Assembly (NCBI GenBank): GCA_022825705.1
Contig: JAJDWH010000041.1
Location: 1-64,000, forward strand
Length of the DNA: 64,000 nucleotides
Source of the DNA: Alphaproteobacteria bacterium
GTDB lineage: Bacteria; Pseudomonadota; Alphaproteobacteria; TMED109
Direction of reading: 5' to 3'
The first letter of the stretch is position 1. Each line of letters begins with the position of its first letter. Below the pieces are notes generated by a model that saw nothing but the letters and a program-made list of their open reading frames with translations, had not been told where the DNA came from and did not search any database. This document shows, piece by piece, positions 1-17,971 of the stretch. The position numbers and the translations under genes were made by a program.

Positions 1-43
1 GCACCACGCGCTCGCGAAGGTCGTTCGAATAGGGTCGAGTCAT
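1..43 (-). CDS. IS630-family transposase, N-terminal fragment (runs off the window)
   Basis: The reverse complement of bases 43 to 1 reads ATG followed by MTRPYSNDLRERVV. This is the characteristic opening of IS630/Tc1-mariner-type transposases, which typically start with a PYS-x-DLRERVV motif. Only 14 codons are inside the window, so catalytic DDE residues cannot be assessed and it is unknown whether the gene is intact. The fragment is too short for length-filtered ORF callers but the motif is distinctive. It marks the left flank of the decayed accessory region. Confidence 0.7.
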   Translation of the reverse strand, partial: MTRPYSNDLRERVV

Positions 44-139
44 GGGTCCGGCCTCCAGTGCAGCCAAAACCCCTTTGAATCACATCCTTACCCAAAATGG
101 AATCCCCCCGGGGATTCTCTCAATGACAGACACGCTCTA
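1..139 (-). mobile_element. Edge of an IS630-family insertion sequence
   Basis: The window opens inside an insertion sequence. The first 43 bases encode, on the minus strand, the N-terminus of an IS630-type transposase. Between that start codon and about base 137 lies an untranslated end. Read inward, this end starts GAGCGTGTCTG directly after a TA dinucleotide at 138-139. IS630 elements insert at and duplicate TA, so I place the boundary there by inference. The other end is outside the window, so neither the inverted repeats nor the target duplication can be compared. Confidence 0.6.
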
Positions 140-368
140 AGGCGGATAACCAAGCATTGTTACACGGGAATTATATAGCAAGTCGCACCACGCAGCCGGT
201 GATGATGCTAACATGATGCCACCAGACGATGAAGGCCGTGCCCCCAAGACGTTTTGTGCCAGCGGCGGGGTGCGGCCTTCGCCAGAGGATGAGGACTGGC
301 TTGCCCGGTTCTCGTCTAGGGGCCGCCCGCGATATTTCAGCACACCTTTCAGGCCGTCGCGGGCGGCT
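140..368. other. Short non-coding gap
   Basis: Between the presumed IS boundary and the disrupted gene at 369 I see no supportable gene. The overlapping ORFs here have no recognisable domain, and no terminator or repeat is evident. Confidence 0.5.
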
Positions 369-1101
369 TCACTTGTGATCAAGTCGATGATGATGGTTGT
401 ACAGGCGCGGCAGATCGTGCAGCGCAATCTTGAACTGCGTGTCGTGGTTGCGTAAGCCACGACCGTTCAGGGTCCGCGCGTCGAAGTCGATGGCAACCGT
501 GCCGTTGGCGACCATCCGAATGAAGCCTGTTGCCTGCGGTTCCCAGCAGAGCCGTTCCGCATCGTAGGCGACTTGGCGGATACCATGCCGCGTTCGCGGA
601 CGGCCTCGGACTGCGACGAGTCTGCGCAGTCTGCCCACAGACGCATTGATGAGCCGGTCGTGCGCCATCAGGAGCGGCTCGATCAGCCTGCGCCACGTGA
701 GAGTGATCTCGTCGGCACTTGAATGAACCTTCTGGGCCCAGCTGTCCTGCAAGTCCCCCTGTCGGGATAACATGGCCTCGATGACCGCAATGTGGCTGCC
801 CGCCGTTTCCGGGTTGAGCGTTCCTTGGACGGTTGCCTGCAACCAGCGCACCAATTCCCGGTTGTCGGCGTAGATGCCCCATCGTTCGTCCGTCAGTTCG
901 CTCCTGACAAACAGGGCATGGCCGGCGCCCCTGGGGCGAATAGGTGATCGTCCAGAGGCTGGCATCGCTCGAAAACGGTCCACCCGGCGCACGGCTGAGT
1001 CGAATGAACGGCTTCTCGCCGTTCAGGATCAACTTCCCCGGCACAATGGGGGGAAGCCCTGGCCCGGTCCCGCTGAACTTGTCGAAGCTTGCAGTTGTCA
1101 T
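369..1101 (-). pseudogene. Frameshifted gene; C-terminus resembles MvaI/BcnI restriction endonucleases
   Basis: Two overlapping minus-strand frames together read as one protein. The first opens with MTTASFDKFSGTGPGLPP at 1101 and stays sensible to about WTITYSPQG. The second continues from AGHALFVRSELTDERWG to the stop at 369. One base near 930 separates them, so the gene is disrupted by a frameshift (or a sequencing error). The last 50 residues contain IDFDART, then LRNHDTQFKI and DLPRLY. From memory this resembles the conserved C-terminal segment of MvaI/BcnI-type restriction enzymes, but no catalytic D/E-x-K motif could be confidently placed. The N-terminal half belongs to no family I can name, so a chimera of two remnants is also possible. 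Confidence 0.4.
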
Positions 1102-1684
1102 GAGCTGTGTTCCCTACGTCAGCGATCGATGGCCAACGGCCGCTTCCGCTCCGCGATACGCACGGCTCCCCGGTATCAGGGTGTCCATGCAACTTGCATA
1201 GGCGGTTTCCGCATCGTGGGACCAATCGAGTTTCAAGAGCGCTGGACATCACCATCGACCCTGACCCCGCGGAGGCCTATTCCGGCGCCATTCGTGTCGA
1301 CGGGGGGAGAGCAACGGCCAGCCAAGCGATCACAACCGCAAGAATTCGCTCCTTGGCTTATGGCTCCTTGAGGAGACCCGGTGACGGGACGGCTTGCCGG
1401 CTTCCCGCCGCCGAACCTCCGCAGGCAACCTGACGGGAGTCAGGCCGATTACCAAGGTGCATGCAGCAGGGGAACTGCAAGACACATGACTCGCCCCCCT
1501 TCAGACAGGACACCATGAAACGTTAGCGACGGGATCCTATCCATTAACTTATCATGTCAAGACTGGTATTAAAGGCCGTTAAGTCATAAAGCGAGATAGA
1601 AATGAGTAAAAATACCCGTGACTTCCAACGGTTGGTTTTCCGCGAACGCGGTGGGTCTACAGGTGCATTCGGTGGCAGACACCG
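1102..1684. other. No supportable gene
   Basis: This stretch has only short overlapping ORFs without domain signatures. The frame of the following Tad2-like gene is open from 1622 but has no ATG or GTG before the TTG at 1685, and codons 1622-1684 do not resemble family members. A small A/T-rich patch at 1540-1615 could carry a promoter, though no clear -35/-10 pair is visible. Confidence 0.5.
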
Positions 1685-1969
1685 TTGGCAGCGGCCCGGC
1701 CGTTGCGCCTGGATGACTGTCTTCCGTTCTCCGTGGCACTCCACGTGCTGCACGCCGGCATGCGCATCGCCCGCGAAGGCTGGGACGGAAAGGGGCAGTG
1801 GGTGGCCCTGCACGTCAACAGCGCCGACGACCGCATGGATCGCCCGTTCATCTACATCAACCCGGTCGACGGCATGCGCGTGCCGTGGGTAGCAAGCCAG
1901 ACGGACATCCTTGCCGACGACTGGTGTGTGCTCACCCCCGCCGTGCCGGACATCGTTCTCGCCGCCTGA
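1685..1969 (+). CDS. Tad2-like protein (DUF2829 family)
   Basis: A protein of about 94 residues. The N-terminal part has ALHVLHAG, then IAREGWDGKGQ, and the C-terminal part has VPWVASQTDILADDW. These match the hallmarks of the DUF2829/Tad2 fold: an x-ALxxLxxG-x-VARxGWNGKGM opening and a PWxASQTDLLAEDW ending. Family knowledge: phage Tad2 proteins bind and sequester the cyclic ADP-ribose isomer made by Thoeris ThsB, blocking ThsA activation; many homologues are uncharacterised. The start is uncertain. TTG at 1685 is the only upstream candidate, while family alignment would place the true start near codon 14, where no ATG is in frame, so a 5' mutation is possible. It lies 28 bases before a small exported protein and has no recognisable phage genes beside it. 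Confidence 0.75.
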   Translation: MAAARPLRLDDCLPFSVALHVLHAGMRIAREGWDGKGQWVALHVNSADDRMDRPFIYINPVDGMRVPWVASQTDILADDWCVLTPAVPDIVLAA

Positions 1970-1997
1970 GCGCGGTCTCACCCGAAGGAGACCCTTC

Positions 1998-2348
1998 ATG
2001 CGAAACCTCTTTGTGTCACTCGGGATCATTGGTTGCGTGCTGGCACTGATCTATTGGGCTCTGCCAGCCACGGCGCAGGTGGAGTTCAAGCCCCTCTACC
2101 AGCCGGCTCCCGGCCTCTACGACTTTCAGCCGATGGTGCCGCTCTATCAGCCGGTCGTTGTTCCCGACGCCGGCACCGCGCACCGGAACTGGATGCGCAA
2201 CTTCGAGGCCGAACAGGCGATGCGCGACGAAAGCTATCAGCGCATGGTCGAACGCAACCGGTATCGGATTCAGCAGAGCGAACGGAGCTTCCTCGAGCGC
2301 TGCGCCCAGTACAACCGGGGGTGCCTCAGAAAGCTGCTGGATCGATGA
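1998..2348 (+). CDS. Small exported protein, unknown function
   Basis: This encodes 116 residues starting with MRNLFVSLGIIGCVLALI, a short charged N-terminus plus hydrophobic core, with likely signal peptidase cleavage after ALPATAQ. The mature part is rich in proline and tyrosine at first (PLYQPAPGLYDFQP and then PLYQPVVVP) and becomes highly charged and helical towards the end (MRNFEAEQAMRDESYQRMVE). Two cysteines occur near the C-terminus in RCAQYNRGCLRK. A good ribosome binding site (AAGGAG) lies 8 bases before the ATG, which supports this start over an upstream in-frame ATG at 1911. It follows the Tad2-like gene on the same strand and may be cotranscribed. I do not recognise the family. 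Confidence 0.6.
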   Translation: MRNLFVSLGIIGCVLALIYWALPATAQVEFKPLYQPAPGLYDFQPMVPLYQPVVVPDAGTAHRNWMRNFEAEQAMRDESYQRMVERNRYRIQQSERSFLERCAQYNRGCLRKLLDR

Positions 2349-3423
2349 GCGTGCGTCAGCCAAGCGGTTTCGACGTGTCGCTGGTACGTCGGAAAGAACT
2401 CGAAGCATTCGCTGCCCCTGTTATTGCCAGCCTTCTTCATGCTCGGCGTAGCCCTGCCGGGGCAGCGCTCGGAAGCGGCCGGACAGTCAGCGTGAGCGCG
2501 ACCGCAGCTGCTGGCTGGGCGTCGACGTTTCGGTGATCCGGCCTTTGGGTTTCATGGCTGGAGGCTGCAGGGAGGTGCGCTGGACCGACTTCGAGAGCGA
2601 CTGGTCTCCTCACACGCCGGCGGCCGAGGATCGGGAGGACGGGAGGCGAAGCCTGCGTTTCTCGGTCCACAACCGGGCTTTTGCGCTAATGGGCTTCAGT
2701 CCCACGCTTGTGGCGGTGCACGAGGAACGGGAGACCAACGCCCAGCTCTACGACTGCAAGCGCACCCGGGGGGGCAGCGCTTCGTGCGGCAGTTCTGACG
2801 GGGCGGGAGTGCGAGGGAGTGGCGTTCCTGGCTCGCGCAGGTGCCGGCGGCCGGCGGGTTCGACGCGCAAGCCCGCGGGGACCTTGGACGGCGGTCGTCC
2901 TTGCCGAAGGACTGGCCATGAAACGCTTGCTCGCAATGGGCGTGGCGCTCGCCCTAGGCGGTCGTGAAACCGCCGGCGTGCATTTTGGGGGCGGCTGCCG
3001 GCGCTTCTTCGCCGACGGTGCGAGCCTGAGCGCCGATGAGTTCGCCCTTCATGTGCCGGATCACTGCTGCGGCGTGCCGATGACGCGCGGCGGATGCGAC
3101 ATGCCGCCGTTCGTCACGCTGGAGGCCGAAGTGAAGGTGACTGTCCGGACCCTGCGCGTATTTGTTCTTGTGGGCGCCCGATTACCGGCAGCCTGGCCTC
3201 TTTGGGCGATGCTTCGGGGCGCGCAAGCGGCGCCCGCCGGGCTCGCGCCCGGGTTGCCAGGATCCGGTCGCCCGGGACTTCGCGAGAACGGTGGCGCGGC
3301 GGCTGCAGAACGGGCAATTTCCAGCGATCACCGGACACACGCCAGGCCATCCCTGCGGATCGCAGCCGACGACGTGCGCGGCTTTGCGGGAACTTGTGGC
3401 GTCACACTTCCTGGCGGCGACGC
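2349..3423 (+). other. Decayed coding remnants, unassigned
   Basis: About 1.1 kb without an intact gene. Pieces look like former exported proteins. The frame around 2395-2485 reads KNSKHSLPLLLPAFFMLG then VALPGQRSEA, a signal-peptide-like stretch without a start codon. At 2918 an ATG starts MKRLLAMGVALALGG, again signal-like, followed by DHCCGVPMTRGGCDMPPFV in the same frame (up to 3427). No segment shows a domain I can name. I treat the region as eroded accessory DNA upstream of the subtilase gene. Confidence 0.4.
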
Positions 3424-5814
3424 ATGATCCGGGTTGGTCCGGTGGTGGTTGCGGCGGCGGCCCTTCTGGCGCTGTCCGCGTGCGACGGCGGCGACGGCGG
3501 CGGGCCTTCGGTCCTGCCTCCTCCTCCCGACGCCGAGCCTCCTCCCCCGCCCGTCGGCGATGAACCTCCTCCCGGCGGTGACCCGCGTCCTCCCCCCGCC
3601 GGTGGCGAGACCTTCACGCCGTACCGCGAAGTGGTGATCGGCTTTCCCGAACTTCTCGCCACCTCCAGCGCTCGTCTCGCGGAGATCGCCTGGGACGAAG
3701 CCGACCGGGTCGGTGCCATGCACCGGCGGGGCGGGACCGGTAGGGGCCAGATCGTGGGCTTGACGGACTCCGGTGCGCATATGGACCATCCGGATCTCGA
3801 GGGACAGTTCGCGCATGTCTGCGCCGTGGGCTGGACCTGCAACGACCGGGGCGACATACCGGCGGCGGCGGACCGGTACGGTGGGAGAGACTTTTCCAGC
3901 GACCTGTGGGACGGGGACGGTCACGGCACCCAGGTCGCCGGCGTCGTCGCCGCGAGGAAGAACGGCGCCGGGGTCTACGGCATCGCCTACGAGGCCGGGG
4001 TCGCGTCCTACGCGAACCAGGTGGGCCAGCTGCACGAGGGGTGCCACCGTCACGAGGACTGTCACGACCGGGGTCACGCCTGGGGCGAGATCTTCGACCG
4101 GGAGAATGCGCGGGGTGTCCGGTGGATGCAGGGCCTCGGCGTGCGCGTCGCGAGCAACAGCTGGGGACGGTTCCTGCACCGCCAGGGGGTCACGCCGCAG
4201 AGCTACACGGCGGCGCGCCTTCGCTCCATCATGGCCGAGAGCCTGCCGGCCTACGAGGCCTATGTCGCCGCCGGCGGCGTCATGGTCTGGGCGAATGGAA
4301 ACCAGCCCGGGGACCGGCATCCGTACCCGGAGGTGGAGGGGGTCCTGCCGCGCTTCTTCCCGGCGCTCGAGAAGGGCTGGCTCACGGTGGGCGGCCTTGG
4401 CGGGGACCGTCTCGACGGCGGAGGCCAGCCCTGCGGCGAGGCCGCCGCGTGGTGCGTGGCCGCTCCGTATGTGGTCGCGACGACCGCCGTGGACGGGCTC
4501 TGGACGCTGGCGGTGGGCACCTCCATCGCCGCCCCCTATGCCGCCGCGGCGCTGGCCGCGTTGAAGAGCATGTTCCCGAACCTCAGCCACCAGGAGGTTC
4601 GCGAGCGCATTCTCGTCACGGCGGACGACGCCTTCCCGGGCTACAGCCGACACATCTACGGGCAGGGGCGGATCGACGTGGAGAAGGCGTCAAGGCCGGT
4701 GGGCGGCACCTACTTCGCGCTGGGCGCCCGGGACCAGGGTCCGGTGGTGTCGACCGCGGGGGCGCGGGCGGGGCTGCCCGGCGGCGCGATCGGCCGGTAT
4801 TTCGCGGGTCGGACCGTCACCGTCCTGGACGGTTTCCAGCGGGCGCCTTTCGAAGTGGGTCTGGAGGCCTTCGCGGAGGCCCGGAGGAGCGGGTACCTCT
4901 CGCTCGACGACCTGGCGCTGGCGCCGCTGCGGCGGGGCCAGCGCTCCGGCGGCGAAGGGCGCGCGGTGGTCGCCGTGTCAGGCACCGGTTTCCAGGCACA
5001 CGGCCTTGCGGAGGGAGGCTTGCTCGTGGGTTTCGGCCGGGGCGCGGGCGTGGCGCAGGGTCTGGCGGAGCTCGCCGGATCCCCGCTGGTCGCCGGGGGC
5101 TGGCGGATGTCGAAGGACGCCGCGGGGATCGCCCTGGGGCTCAGCGGGGCATCGGGCGAATGGCATGCGGTGGGGGTCTCCGGCACCGCCGGGACTGGCG
5201 CCCCGGGGTTCGGGATCGCGGGCTGGAACCCGGCCGCGGTGCTGGCTGCGTCGTTCGCTCCGCGTCGCGCGGGAGGGGCGGGCGGCGCTGACGCGTTCGG
5301 CGTTTCCTTCGCCTCCGGGCTCGGCCGGCCGATGGGCTGGGACGGCGCCGGCGCGCTGGAGATCGCGGGCGACAGCGCCGGACTCGCCTGGAGGCGCATC
5401 GTCCCGGCCGGTGAGACCGGCCGTCTGGACCTGACCGGCCGCGTGACGCGTCTGGCAGTGCGGAGCGGCCCGCTGCTGCGCTTCGACGACGTGCTGCTGG
5501 CGGCCGCGGACCTCGTGATCTCGTTCCGCCCCCACCGCCTGGTCACGGTGGCGGCGCGGCTGGGGGCGGAACGTCCCGCCGCAGTGGTGTCCGGGCGCAT
5601 CCGGGCCGCCACCGGCGTGGACGAAAGCGGGCAGATCGCCTATCAGGACATCGTGATCGACGGCCGCGATCTGCTGTCCTTCGACAGGGCTGGGCTGAGC
5701 GTCGTCTTCGCCGACGATCCGAATGCCGCTCTCGGTCTGGGCGTTGCGGCGGTGCGCGACGGCTTCGGCCGGACGGAGGCCCTGGCGGGTATGCGGATGG
5801 ACCTCGAGTTCTGA
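3424..5814 (+). CDS. Surface subtilisin-like serine protease lipoprotein with C-terminal barrel-like domain (NalP-like)
   Basis: A 796-residue secreted serine protease of the S8 family. The N-terminus MIRVGPVVVAAAALLALSAC has a lipobox (LSAC), so the mature protein should be lipidated at Cys20. A proline-rich linker (residues about 28-60) leads into the subtilase domain. Catalytic residues are visible: Asp115 in LTDSGAHMDHPDL, His167 in DGHGTQVAGVVA and Ser367 in GTSIAAPYA. Residues from about 440 to the end are Gly/Ala-rich with alternating hydrophobic positions and finish LEF, which suggests a beta-barrel translocator. Lipidated autotransporter subtilases such as Neisseria NalP/AspA have this architecture. 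The barrel is inferred, not matched. The ribosome binding site is weak (GGCGG). The open frame extends upstream to 3094, but the lipobox supports this start. Confidence 0.8.
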   Translation: MIRVGPVVVAAAALLALSACDGGDGGGPSVLPPPPDAEPPPPPVGDEPPPGGDPRPPPAGGETFTPYREVVIGFPELLATSSARLAEIAWDEADRVGAMHRRGGTGRGQIVGLTDSGAHMDHPDLEGQFAHVCAVGWTCNDRGDIPAAADRYGGRDFSSDLWDGDGHGTQVAGVVAARKNGAGVYGIAYEAGVASYANQVGQLHEGCHRHEDCHDRGHAWGEIFDRENARGVRWMQGLGVRVASNSWGRFLHRQGVTPQSYTAARLRSIMAESLPAYEAYVAAGGVMVWANGNQPGDRHPYPEVEGVLPRFFPALEKGWLTVGGLGGDRLDGGGQPCGEAAAWCVAAPYVVATTAVDGLWTLAVGTSIAAPYAAAALAALKSMFPNLSHQEVRERILVTADDAFPGYSRHIYGQGRIDVEKASRPVGGTYFALGARDQGPVVSTAGARAGLPGGAIGRYFAGRTVTVLDGFQRAPFEVGLEAFAEARRSGYLSLDDLALAPLRRGQRSGGEGRAVVAVSGTGFQAHGLAEGGLLVGFGRGAGVAQGLAELAGSPLVAGGWRMSKDAAGIALGLSGASGEWHAVGVSGTAGTGAPGFGIAGWNPAAVLAASFAPRRAGGAGGADAFGVSFASGLGRPMGWDGAGALEIAGDSAGLAWRRIVPAGETGRLDLTGRVTRLAVRSGPLLRFDDVLLAAADLVISFRPHRLVTVAARLGAERPAAVVSGRIRAATGVDESGQIAYQDIVIDGRDLLSFDRAGLSVVFADDPNAALGLGVAAVRDGFGRTEALAGMRMDLEF

Positions 5815-8843: not shown

Positions 8844-9242
8844 TCAATCGGGCGACACGACGGTCCAGTCGCTGGCATTCGCCGCGCTTGCCAGCCGCCT
8901 GTCGTAGCACACGAATCGGTGCAAGGACTCTCCCAGGAGAGACGCCGTGGCGAGGTGGATGGCGTCAAGGGTACGAAGGTCCGCCGGGTCCATGGTCGCC
9001 GCGCGGGACAGCACCTTGGCGTTGATCCGTATGAGCCCAATGCAGGAGAGTACCTCCCTGGCCGTGCGCAAGGTTGGGGCTCCATGCGGCATGATTGCCC
9101 GAGTGACCTCCACCCCGGCGAGTGCACTCGACACCAGTGCGCGGCCACGGAGATATCGCCTCAACGCGGCGGACTCATTTTCTCGCACCACGAGCTTGAC
9201 GACGGCCGATGAATCGACGTAGCAGAGGCGTTCAGCGTTCAT
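8844..9242 (-). CDS. PIN-domain toxin (VapC-like ribonuclease)
   Basis: A 132-residue PIN-domain protein. The first acidic residue is Asp10 in YVDSSAVVKLV, the second acidic cluster is in LRTLDAIHLATA, and the third is in FVCYDRRLASAA. These are the residues that coordinate Mg2+ in VapC toxins, which cleave tRNA or rRNA to arrest growth. The start at 9242 gives a normal N-terminus; the longer frame to 9338 runs through the antitoxin gene. It overlaps the antitoxin's 3' end by 11 bases, the typical antitoxin-first arrangement with translational coupling. Confidence 0.85.
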   Translation of the reverse strand: MNAERLCYVDSSAVVKLVVRENESAALRRYLRGRALVSSALAGVEVTRAIMPHGAPTLRTAREVLSCIGLIRINAKVLSRAATMDPADLRTLDAIHLATASLLGESLHRFVCYDRRLASAANASDWTVVSPD

Positions 9243-9507
9243 CGCTGCGCAGACGCGCGAGCCTGGCGGAAGGCGGTTCAGCACCGGGAGCGAGATCGAC
9301 AGGCTCGGGAAGTTCGTCTGTCGAACGGGTCGCTTCATCCAGATCGCCCGCCGCGCGGAGCCGGTCGAGCGGCGATGTGTTCGGAATGGGAGTCAGGAGG
9401 GCGATCGGCCGTCCGCGATCGGTCACCTCGAATGTCTCGCCTGCCGCTACCCGCCTGAGGTAGTCGCTCGCCCTCTGCCGCAATTCACGGATTCCGATCG
9501 CATCCAT
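9232..9507 (-). CDS. Phd/YefM-type antitoxin
   Basis: 91 residues. The N-terminal 50 match the Phd/YefM DNA-binding fold: MDAIGIRELRQRASDYLRRV, then AAGETFEVTDRGRPIALLTP. The C-terminal part is acidic and likely disordered until it wraps the toxin (LDEATRSTDELPEPVDL). Family knowledge: it neutralises the PIN toxin encoded directly downstream and autoregulates the operon by binding palindromes at its own promoter. Just upstream, at 9508-9520, GCTACATGTAGC forms a perfect palindrome overlapping the start region, a plausible operator. Confidence 0.85.
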   Translation of the reverse strand: MDAIGIRELRQRASDYLRRVAAGETFEVTDRGRPIALLTPIPNTSPLDRLRAAGDLDEATRSTDELPEPVDLAPGAEPPSARLARLRSDER

Positions 9508-16089: not shown

Positions 16090-17310
16090 CTAGATGCGCA
16101 TCGTCTTGAGATGGGCGTCGATACGTTCTGTTACCCGTCTTCGTTGCGGCAGGTTCTTTTTCTCTTTCTCCCAGACTTCGTGGAACCGCTCCACCGTCTG
16201 TCTGGCGGTGTTGAGCACCGGTGTCTCAGGGAGACCGGCCTTGCCTGCCAGGTAGGACAGCTCATCAAACGTGTAGCCGTCGAAGCGTTTCGTTCTCGCG
16301 AACTTGAGGGCAGCTTCCTCATCCTCGATATAGGGAATGGTCGAGACCAGGTCATAGGCCGGTGACAGAGCAGGCGCCCGCTTGTCCGGATAGATCAGCG
16401 ACCAGTTCTTCAGATGCATATCGGCATTGCCGGTCAAGGTGCAGAAGGTCAAGCGCCTGATGAATTCTTCGATGTCGGTGTCACCGGTCTCCATTCGAAG
16501 TACGGTTGCGATATTGCGGTAGCTTGCCGTGTCATACTTCTTCTCGGGGTAGACGCCGAAGACCTGCGCGAAGTCTTCTGTGTGAACTGGGCGGTCCGGT
16601 GTGCGGTCAAAGCGCCTGATCGCAAAGGCTTGTCCTGTGAAATCCCCGACCCCCTCCGGCAGGTTTGCGATCGCATCGACATCTACGAGCTTGAACTCAG
16701 GTACATCGATGCCGACCAGTCGGGCTAGGGTAAGGAGCGCATATTCGTTTTCGGGTATGCCTTCAAATCGCAGGGAGGGCAGCTTGACGATCCACGAACC
16801 GCCGACGCCGGATGCCGGTATTGTCAGGCCCTTGCTGGCTTCGTCGTTATCGACCGCGGAGAACTTTAGCTGCACGCCGGCAAGCGAGAAGCGCAGCGCA
16901 TTCTCGCGCTTCTTTTTGGCGCCTTCGACGCCTTCGTTCTCAAGGCCGGGCGGCCATTTGTCGCCGTTTGCGGGCTCGACAGTGATTGCGCCCGGAAGGT
17001 CATGGCCCAGGGCCCAGAGCAGATAGAACTCGCGCTCTTGATTTACGCCGGCAAGGCGGGCGAGATACTTCCGCAGGTAGCCCTCGGGCAGTAGATTTGA
17101 AAAGAAGGGCAACAGGCGCTTTTGCTTAACTGCAAAATCGATAATCGGATTCCCGTACACGTCCTTGAACCACAACCCGAGAGTCGGTCGGTCCCTGTCA
17201 GCGGTATATTCGTCCGTGAAGCTGAAATATGTGCGGTCGCCGCCAACATTCGTCAACGTGCCGATTGTTTCACCGTGTAGATGTATGTTCAGGACAGGTA
17301 TTTCAGCCAT
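16090..17310 (-). CDS. hipA: HipA-family serine/threonine kinase toxin
   Basis: 406 residues with the full HipA layout. The N-subdomain (HLHGETIGTLTNVGGDRTYF, then PFFSNLLPEGYLRKYLA) precedes the kinase core, which has LAGVQLKFSA (glycine-loop substitute), SWIVKLPS (ATP-binding lysine), NEYALLTLAR and the catalytic loop LTGNADMHLKNWSL (Asp in N-x-D). The metal site is LSPAYDLVST. Family knowledge: HipA phosphorylates glutamyl-tRNA synthetase or other aminoacyl-tRNA synthetases and triggers persistence; HipB neutralises it. The ATG at 17310 overlaps the upstream hipB gene by 8 bases, indicating translational coupling. Confidence 0.9.
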   Translation of the reverse strand: MAEIPVLNIHLHGETIGTLTNVGGDRTYFSFTDEYTADRDRPTLGLWFKDVYGNPIIDFAVKQKRLLPFFSNLLPEGYLRKYLARLAGVNQEREFYLLWALGHDLPGAITVEPANGDKWPPGLENEGVEGAKKKRENALRFSLAGVQLKFSAVDNDEASKGLTIPASGVGGSWIVKLPSLRFEGIPENEYALLTLARLVGIDVPEFKLVDVDAIANLPEGVGDFTGQAFAIRRFDRTPDRPVHTEDFAQVFGVYPEKKYDTASYRNIATVLRMETGDTDIEEFIRRLTFCTLTGNADMHLKNWSLIYPDKRAPALSPAYDLVSTIPYIEDEEAALKFARTKRFDGYTFDELSYLAGKAGLPETPVLNTARQTVERFHEVWEKEKKNLPQRRRVTERIDAHLKTMRI

Positions 17311-17971
17311 CGTCGTTCGCCCCGTCATCATCAAGCCGGTAAGCGGGTCGCGGCGGCAGAGGCTGCTCGGGGATGGTGTCCACAAGCTGGTTGTGCAAGT
17401 TTTGTACGGTGCCTACCGCTCTCCGCAGCGCCAGAAGTTGTTCCGCCGGAATTCTCGCTGCGTAGGGGGTTGCCTTTTGCTGCTCGGCGCGCCCCTGCCT
17501 CTCGCCCGCAAGTTTCTCGAGGGCCTGTTTCAGCTTGCGGATCGGCCTGCCTATATCTCGCAGCGCTTCCAGTTCTCTGCCAACGTTGCGTAGGCCCTTG
17601 AGAGCCTGGAGGCTGTTCTGGAGCTTCTTCAGTTCACTCAGATCGGGGTAGACGTAGCGAAGGTTCCTGACGGTATCTAGGGTACGGTTGAGTTCCTTAA
17701 CTGCCGGCATTGCCGCGACGGCCGGCGCGGTGCTGCGCACGACACTGTCCACCGCAGCCGCGGCCTTGCACGGAACCAGCTTGAGGTCGAGATCGAGCGT
17801 GCGCGCCAGTTCGATCAGGCTCGACAGGCGGATGTCAACTCCACCGGTCTCGATCTTGGAAATGTGGCTTTGCGGTACGCCGGTGCGCTTGCTCAAGGCC
17901 CGCTGACTGAGGCCCTTGGCTGCTCTCGCTGCTTTGAGCGCGTCGATTAGTTCCTGCGTTGCGTAGCTCAT
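17303..17971 (-). CDS. hipB: HipB-like antitoxin with a long C-terminal coiled-coil extension
   Basis: 222 residues. The Xre-type helix-turn-helix occupies residues about 8-62 (LKAARAAKGLSQRALSKRTG, VPQSHISKIETG, LIELARTLDLDLKLVP), as in HipB. Ordinary HipB proteins are about 70-100 residues, so some 140 residues are additional. That tail is Leu/Lys/Glu-rich with heptad-like spacing (LSELKKLQNSLQALKGLRNV, RKLKQALEKLAGERQG), probably an alpha-helical coiled coil, and it ends acidic. The tail could mediate oligomerisation or contact HipA. Gene order antitoxin-toxin and the 8-base overlap support the HipBA assignment. Confidence 0.8.
   Translation of the reverse strand: MSYATQELIDALKAARAAKGLSQRALSKRTGVPQSHISKIETGGVDIRLSSLIELARTLDLDLKLVPCKAAAAVDSVVRSTAPAVAAMPAVKELNRTLDTVRNLRYVYPDLSELKKLQNSLQALKGLRNVGRELEALRDIGRPIRKLKQALEKLAGERQGRAEQQKATPYAARIPAEQLLALRRAVGTVQNLHNQLVDTIPEQPLPPRPAYRLDDDGANDDG

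What the first reader, a model, noticed from the sequence alone, without database searches (positions are those of the whole stretch)
1685..2348. A Tad2-like (DUF2829) gene with a linked exported protein outside any visible phage
The signature of the Thoeris anti-defence 2 family is clear, yet there are no phage structural genes next to it and its neighbour is a small exported protein. It could be a remnant of phage, an immunity modulator, or a chromosomal nucleotide-binding protein with a new ligand. The TTG start and missing ATG raise doubt about expression.
Basis: partly seen in the sequence, partly recalled or inferred. Interest (0 to 1): 0.55.

Follow-up and report, generated by a model that had tools for sequence, protein, structure and literature searches.

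The report
Stranded compact Tad2-like phage gene
A real but lone member of a known phage family of immune-signal sponges sits in a decayed mobile stretch of an uncultured bacterium's chromosome; the small exported protein beside it looks like an incidental neighbour, so the find is mostly ordinary.

Summary
Window 1685-1969 (+, TTG start) encodes a 94-residue protein matching Tad2-like PF11195 at E 7.5e-20. Its predicted fold matches solved Tad2 structures, and all seven residues invariant among 84 relatives are present. It is a compact form: 36 residues between the two signature motifs against 49 in SPO1 and Myroides Tad2. It therefore lacks the insertion that a review ties to cyclic-dinucleotide binding, while the parts described as the gcADPR pocket remain. 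"Outside any visible phage" needs a caveat: window base 1 is a contig edge at a multicopy insertion element. A 98.8%-identical sister locus shows what lies beyond: a decayed tyrosine-integrase tail and no phage structural genes listed for 25 ORFs. Relatives are mostly phage and prophage genes. The exported neighbour occurs in 3 of 28 family genomes, once without tad2, and has no phage or plasmid match. No TIR, ThsB or SMODS gene was found in the genome. Best reading: a mobile-element Tad2-like sponge gene stranded in a decaying island; a new member of a known kind.

The parts
1685..1969 (+). compact Tad2-like (PF11195) protein, 94 aa, TTG start (true start uncertain)
   Evidence: E 7.5e-20; model pLDDT 84.5; fold matches to Tad2; conserved residues
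1998..2348 (+). small exported protein, 116 aa: N-terminal helix/signal, proline-rich linker, one long helix with two cysteines
   Evidence: sequence; model, pTM 0.34; distribution
1..139 (-). end of a multicopy insertion element with the first codons of its transposase, at the contig edge; TA at 138-139
   Evidence: 8 other places in G000; reading frame MTRPYSNDLRERVV; HTH domains in the related ORF L195; the family label IS630 is recalled, from no call
369..1101 (-). divergent ORF of unknown function, frame broken in both G000 and G024, at different places; weak tail match to MvaI/BcnI endonuclease below the cut-off

Best explanation
A compact Tad2-like gene that belongs to the phage/mobile-element pool and has been stranded in a small, decaying mobile region of an alphaproteobacterial chromosome. 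Shown: family, fold, conserved residues, short form, mobile debris upstream, relatives in phages and prophages. Inferred: like Tad2, it would form a tetramer and soak up an ADP-ribose-type alarm molecule (gcADPR or His-ADPR class) made by TIR-type defences, so shielding the element that carried it. Because the insertion between beta2 and beta5 is missing, it should bind cyclic dinucleotides poorly or not at all. The exported neighbour is most likely an incidental accessory gene, perhaps on the same transcript. I put the origin/identity part near 0.85, the ADPR-type sponge mechanism near 0.55, and present-day function near 0.4.
For: PF11195 match; PDB Tad2 relatives by sequence, E about 2e-9; fold matches Z 9.1-10.8 to 10 Tad2/AcrIIA7 entries, next best 5.6; 7 of 7 invariant and 11 of 12 nearly invariant positions kept, N34 being D. 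Sister locus: 98.8% identity over 4.2 kb, integrase tail upstream. IS end at the contig edge. Spacing 36 against 49; pocket and insertion roles from passages of PMC12043709.
Against: The integrase tail is below Pfam's cut-off (E 0.0018 against PF00589) and has no match in the phage collection. The protein sits on a long branch (1.34 changes per column), so ligand choice may have changed. No TIR/ThsB match in its own genome means no visible local target, though the target would normally be in the next host. No promoter-like site was found nearby. Expression and binding are untested.
Confidence: 0.72

Rival explanations
1. Dead relic: the gene is no longer expressed (no ATG, lost promoter) and survives only because decay has not reached it.
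For: TTG start, no promoter-like site in 1400-2600, neighbouring ORF broken in both genomes, IS elements around.
Against: Frame intact in both genomes with 1 difference in 282 bases against 38 differing columns in the 1548 bases upstream; gene-like codon-position composition; conserved residues kept. The downstream 1984 bases differ equally little (7), so this is weak evidence of constraint.
Confidence: 0.3
2. Domesticated chromosomal module: the Tad2-like protein and the exported protein work together, for example as a signal buffer coupled to an envelope protein.
For: Adjacent, same strand, 28-base gap with a good ribosome site; kept together in G000 and G024.
Against: G000 and G024 share one near-identical locus, so this is one observation; G025 has the exported gene (66% identity) with no PF11195 match in the genome and unrelated surroundings; the other 25 of 28 family genomes have neither.
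Confidence: 0.07
3. Part of an intact prophage whose remaining genes lie beyond the contig edge.
For: The window begins at a contig edge with an IS end.
Against: In G024, 29 kb upstream were read: none of the 25 PHROG families listed (of 28 found) for 25 ORFs is terminase, portal, capsid or tail; the window to the right lists none either.
Confidence: 0.06

Closest known systems
SPO1 phage Tad2 (PDB 8sme, 8smf, 8smg)
   Same: Family, fold (Z 10.3, rmsd 2.2, 74 aligned), GW-G-KG and W-SQTD-LA-DW motifs
   Different: 36 rather than 49 residues between the motifs; N34 is D; chromosomal, not in a phage
Myroides odoratus prophage ModTad2 (PDB 9eib, with His-ADPR)
   Same: Family and fold (Z 10.2); best sequence match in the PDB (E 2e-9)
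   Different: Longer middle segment (49); sits in a prophage according to PMC13299392 (passages)
SptTad2 / HgmTad2 (AcrIIA7), PDB 8wjd, 8kbi-8kbm
   Same: Family and fold (Z 10.8 and 9.1-10.1)
   Different: Longer chains (101 and 104 residues), solved with cGG; the insertion tied to cyclic-dinucleotide binding is absent here
Compact DUF2829 proteins of phages (Mycobacterium phage Curiosium gp4, Aeromonas phage Ahp1, Acinetobacter phage XC38)
   Same: Same compact length and motifs, 41-49% identity
   Different: In phage genomes, next to phage genes

Membership tests
Tad2-like (PF11195) | profile match above the curated cut-off | tested here: met
   71.7 bits against 25
Tad2-like (PF11195) | Tad2 fold | tested here: met
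   predicted model, mean pLDDT 84.5; Foldseek 7e-7; Z up to 10.8 against 5.6 for the next family
Tad2-like (PF11195) | residues invariant among relatives | tested here: met
   7 of 7 invariant, 11 of 12 nearly invariant; individual ligand contacts could not be checked
Tad2 (functional): sequesters gcADPR or His-ADPR as a homotetramer | ligand binding and tetramer | not testable with these tools
   needs protein
Tad2, cyclic-dinucleotide-binding kind | long insertion between beta2 and beta5 | tested here: not met
   motif spacing 36, the modal value in 56 of 151 relatives measured, against 49 in 8sme and 9eib; role of the insertion from PMC12043709 passages
Intact prophage | structural or packaging genes nearby | tested here: not met
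   51 window ORFs and 25 ORFs of the sister locus; 25 of 38 and 25 of 28 families were listed
Part of a resident Thoeris or CBASS system | TIR/ThsB or SMODS gene in the genome | tested here: not met
   0 matches for PF13676, PF08937, PF18144 at E 0.01 in a 93.6% complete genome; other TIR or synthase families not tested
Anti-CRISPR AcrIIA7 (a PF11195 member) | inhibits type II CRISPR-Cas | not tested
   no CRISPR search made

The most novel reading that the evidence does not exclude
The compact form, common in phages but without a solved structure found here, binds a nucleotide signal different from those of the solved Tad2 proteins, and this lineage has been taken over by the host as a chromosomal buffer of an internal ADP-ribose-type signal.
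Probability: 0.05. Interest if true: 0.6.

Novelty: new member of a known kind. Interest (0 to 1): 0.2.

Why it matters
Little hinges on this copy. It is a useful caution that 'anti-defence gene outside a phage' can be a contig edge plus mobile debris. It also points to the compact Tad2-like form: the most frequent spacing among the relatives measured here (56 of 151, a sample biased by the search motifs), while the solved Tad2-family sequences measured have longer spacing. Its ligand range would test whether gcADPR-type binding survives without the insertion.

Tried and rejected
Close relatives of the window's Tad2-like protein in viral contigs: none by single-sequence patterns; the alignment query then gave hundreds, so the first result only meant no close twin. 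Relatives of the exported protein: none in phages at E 1, plasmids at E 0.01, viral contigs, or class genomes other than G000 and G024 (2 of 385; that even sample evidently did not include G025). NAD-salvage neighbour seen in Aeromonas phage Ahp1: searched in 160 loci, no further case. Order-level genome searches returned the same 28 genomes as the family searches and added nothing. Tree: 47 of 81 forks open; the placement next to an archaeal-MAG sequence (97/82, 3 rows) rests on 81 columns and a long branch, so I do not use it. Spanin-like reading of the exported protein (anchor, linker, long helix): considered on the model alone (pTM 0.34), no family match, rejected as unsupported. Restriction-endonuclease reading of the divergent ORF: below cut-off, not claimed. 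Papers: PMC12043709, PMC11722364 and PMC13299392 seen as passages found by the word Tad2; the others only as search listings; the search AcrIIA7 + Tad2 gave none. The primary Tad2 papers were not seen.

Full report
Observation. The TTG-started ORF 1685-1969 and the ORF 1998-2348 are both in the sequence. The first matches Tad2-like PF11195 with 71.7 bits (cut-off 25), E 7.5e-20, residues 15-82; it is the only match in the genome. Two PHROG families of unknown function match the same domain (E 1e-18 and 1e-17). NCBIfam gave none.

Structure and pocket. An AlphaFold2 model from 84 sequences has mean pLDDT 84.5. Foldseek's first 24 matches are all Tad2 or AcrIIA7 chains; VIA-align gives Z 9.1 to 10.8 for ten such entries and 5.6 for the next. 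Among 84 relatives W33, G35, W68, S71, Q72, D74 and D79 are invariant and all are present; of 12 nearly invariant positions only N34 differs (D).

Compact form. From GW to the W of W-SQ there are 36 residues, as in 56 of 151 relatives measured, against 49 in the 8sme and 9eib chains (the relatives were fetched with motifs taken partly from compact members, so the share is biased). A review (PMC12043709, passages) says that Tad2 binds cyclic dinucleotides through an insertion between beta2 and beta5, apart from the gcADPR pockets formed by loops beta1-beta2 and beta3-beta4, strand beta4, loop beta4-alpha3 and helix alpha3. My mapping of those elements onto this protein is inference: they fall in segments that are kept. 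SPO1 Tad2 itself did not bind 3'3'-cGAMP (PMC11722364, passages). A Myroides Tad2 binds His-ADPR (PMC13299392, passages; PDB title). So an ADPR-type ligand is the best guess.

Surroundings. The window is bases 1-64000 of a 155-kb contig, so base 1 is a contig edge. Its first ~140 bases recur at 8 further places in the genome, several at contig ends; the reverse strand there starts a reading frame MTRPYSNDLRERVV, and a related copy carries helix-turn-helix domains of the kind found in transposases. The label IS630 and its TA target are recalled knowledge; the window reads ...CTCTAAGGCGG at the point where homology with the sister genome ...AGCTAAGGCGG begins, which fits. The sister genome G024 (same genus; its contig has the length of JAJEGJ010000053.1, an Alphaproteobacteria MAG) matches window 137-4332 at 98.8%. 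Directly upstream it has a reading frame whose end resembles tyrosine integrases: PF00589 E 0.0018, below cut-off, and matches to annotated integrases on alphaproteobacterial plasmids down to E 6e-6, none in phages. An excisionase-like HTH protein lies about 5 kb further up (L007 1735-2064). PHROG scans of 51 window ORFs and 25 sister ORFs list no terminase, portal, capsid or tail family (25 of 38 and 25 of 28 families listed).

Decay. Between G000 and G024 there are 49 differing alignment columns: 38 in the 1548 bases before the Tad2-like ORF, 1 in that ORF (nonsynonymous), 3 in the exported gene (2 nonsynonymous), 7 after. The divergent ORF at 369-1101 is broken in both genomes, at different points. 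The numbers are too small for a selection test.

Relatives. Four of the better bacterial relatives (L025, L026, L028, L031; 54, 51, 46 and 41% identity) lie among pooled phage genes (39 and 42 ORFs); terminase was confirmed singly in L025 and L031. In the host's family only 2 of 28 genomes have a PF11195 match; by protein search only those same two of 385 class genomes at E 1e-6.

Exported neighbour. Found in 3 of 28 family genomes. In G025 it is 66% identical, has no PF11195 partner anywhere in that genome, and sits between an XRE/IrrE gene and an IS1595-type transposase. Only about 250 bases there are alignable. So the pairing is one observation. It has no match in the phage, plasmid or viral-contig searches.

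Host defence. No PF13676, PF08937 or PF18144 match in the genome at E 0.01, with controls ringing elsewhere. This argues against a resident Thoeris or SMODS-type CBASS partner, within the limits of a 93.6% complete draft and three families.

Verdict. A genuine compact Tad2-like gene of mobile-element origin, stranded in a decayed mobile region. Ordinary in kind; ligand and expression unknown.

Noticed in passing
L017 3977-5905: In Aeromonas phage Ahp1 a compact DUF2829 gene lies just upstream of a nicotinamide phosphoribosyltransferase gene, which would suit an NAD-derived ligand; no second case among 160 loci.
   Followed up: partly
L007 11822-13045: In the sister genome an IS110-type transposase lies where the downstream subtilase gene breaks off (that gene is open in the window at 3094-5814).
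   Followed up: partly
L021 4001-4222: An unannotated Tad2-like stretch on an Aneurinibacillus plasmid has a stop codon inside.
   Followed up: no
window 16090-17971: HTH_3 protein and a downstream ORF that look like a HipBA-type toxin-antitoxin pair (pair name recalled); a PIN-domain ORF lies at 8844-9338.
   Followed up: no
window 369-1101: Divergent ORF of unknown function broken at different places in two near-identical genomes; could be decay or assembly error.
   Followed up: partly
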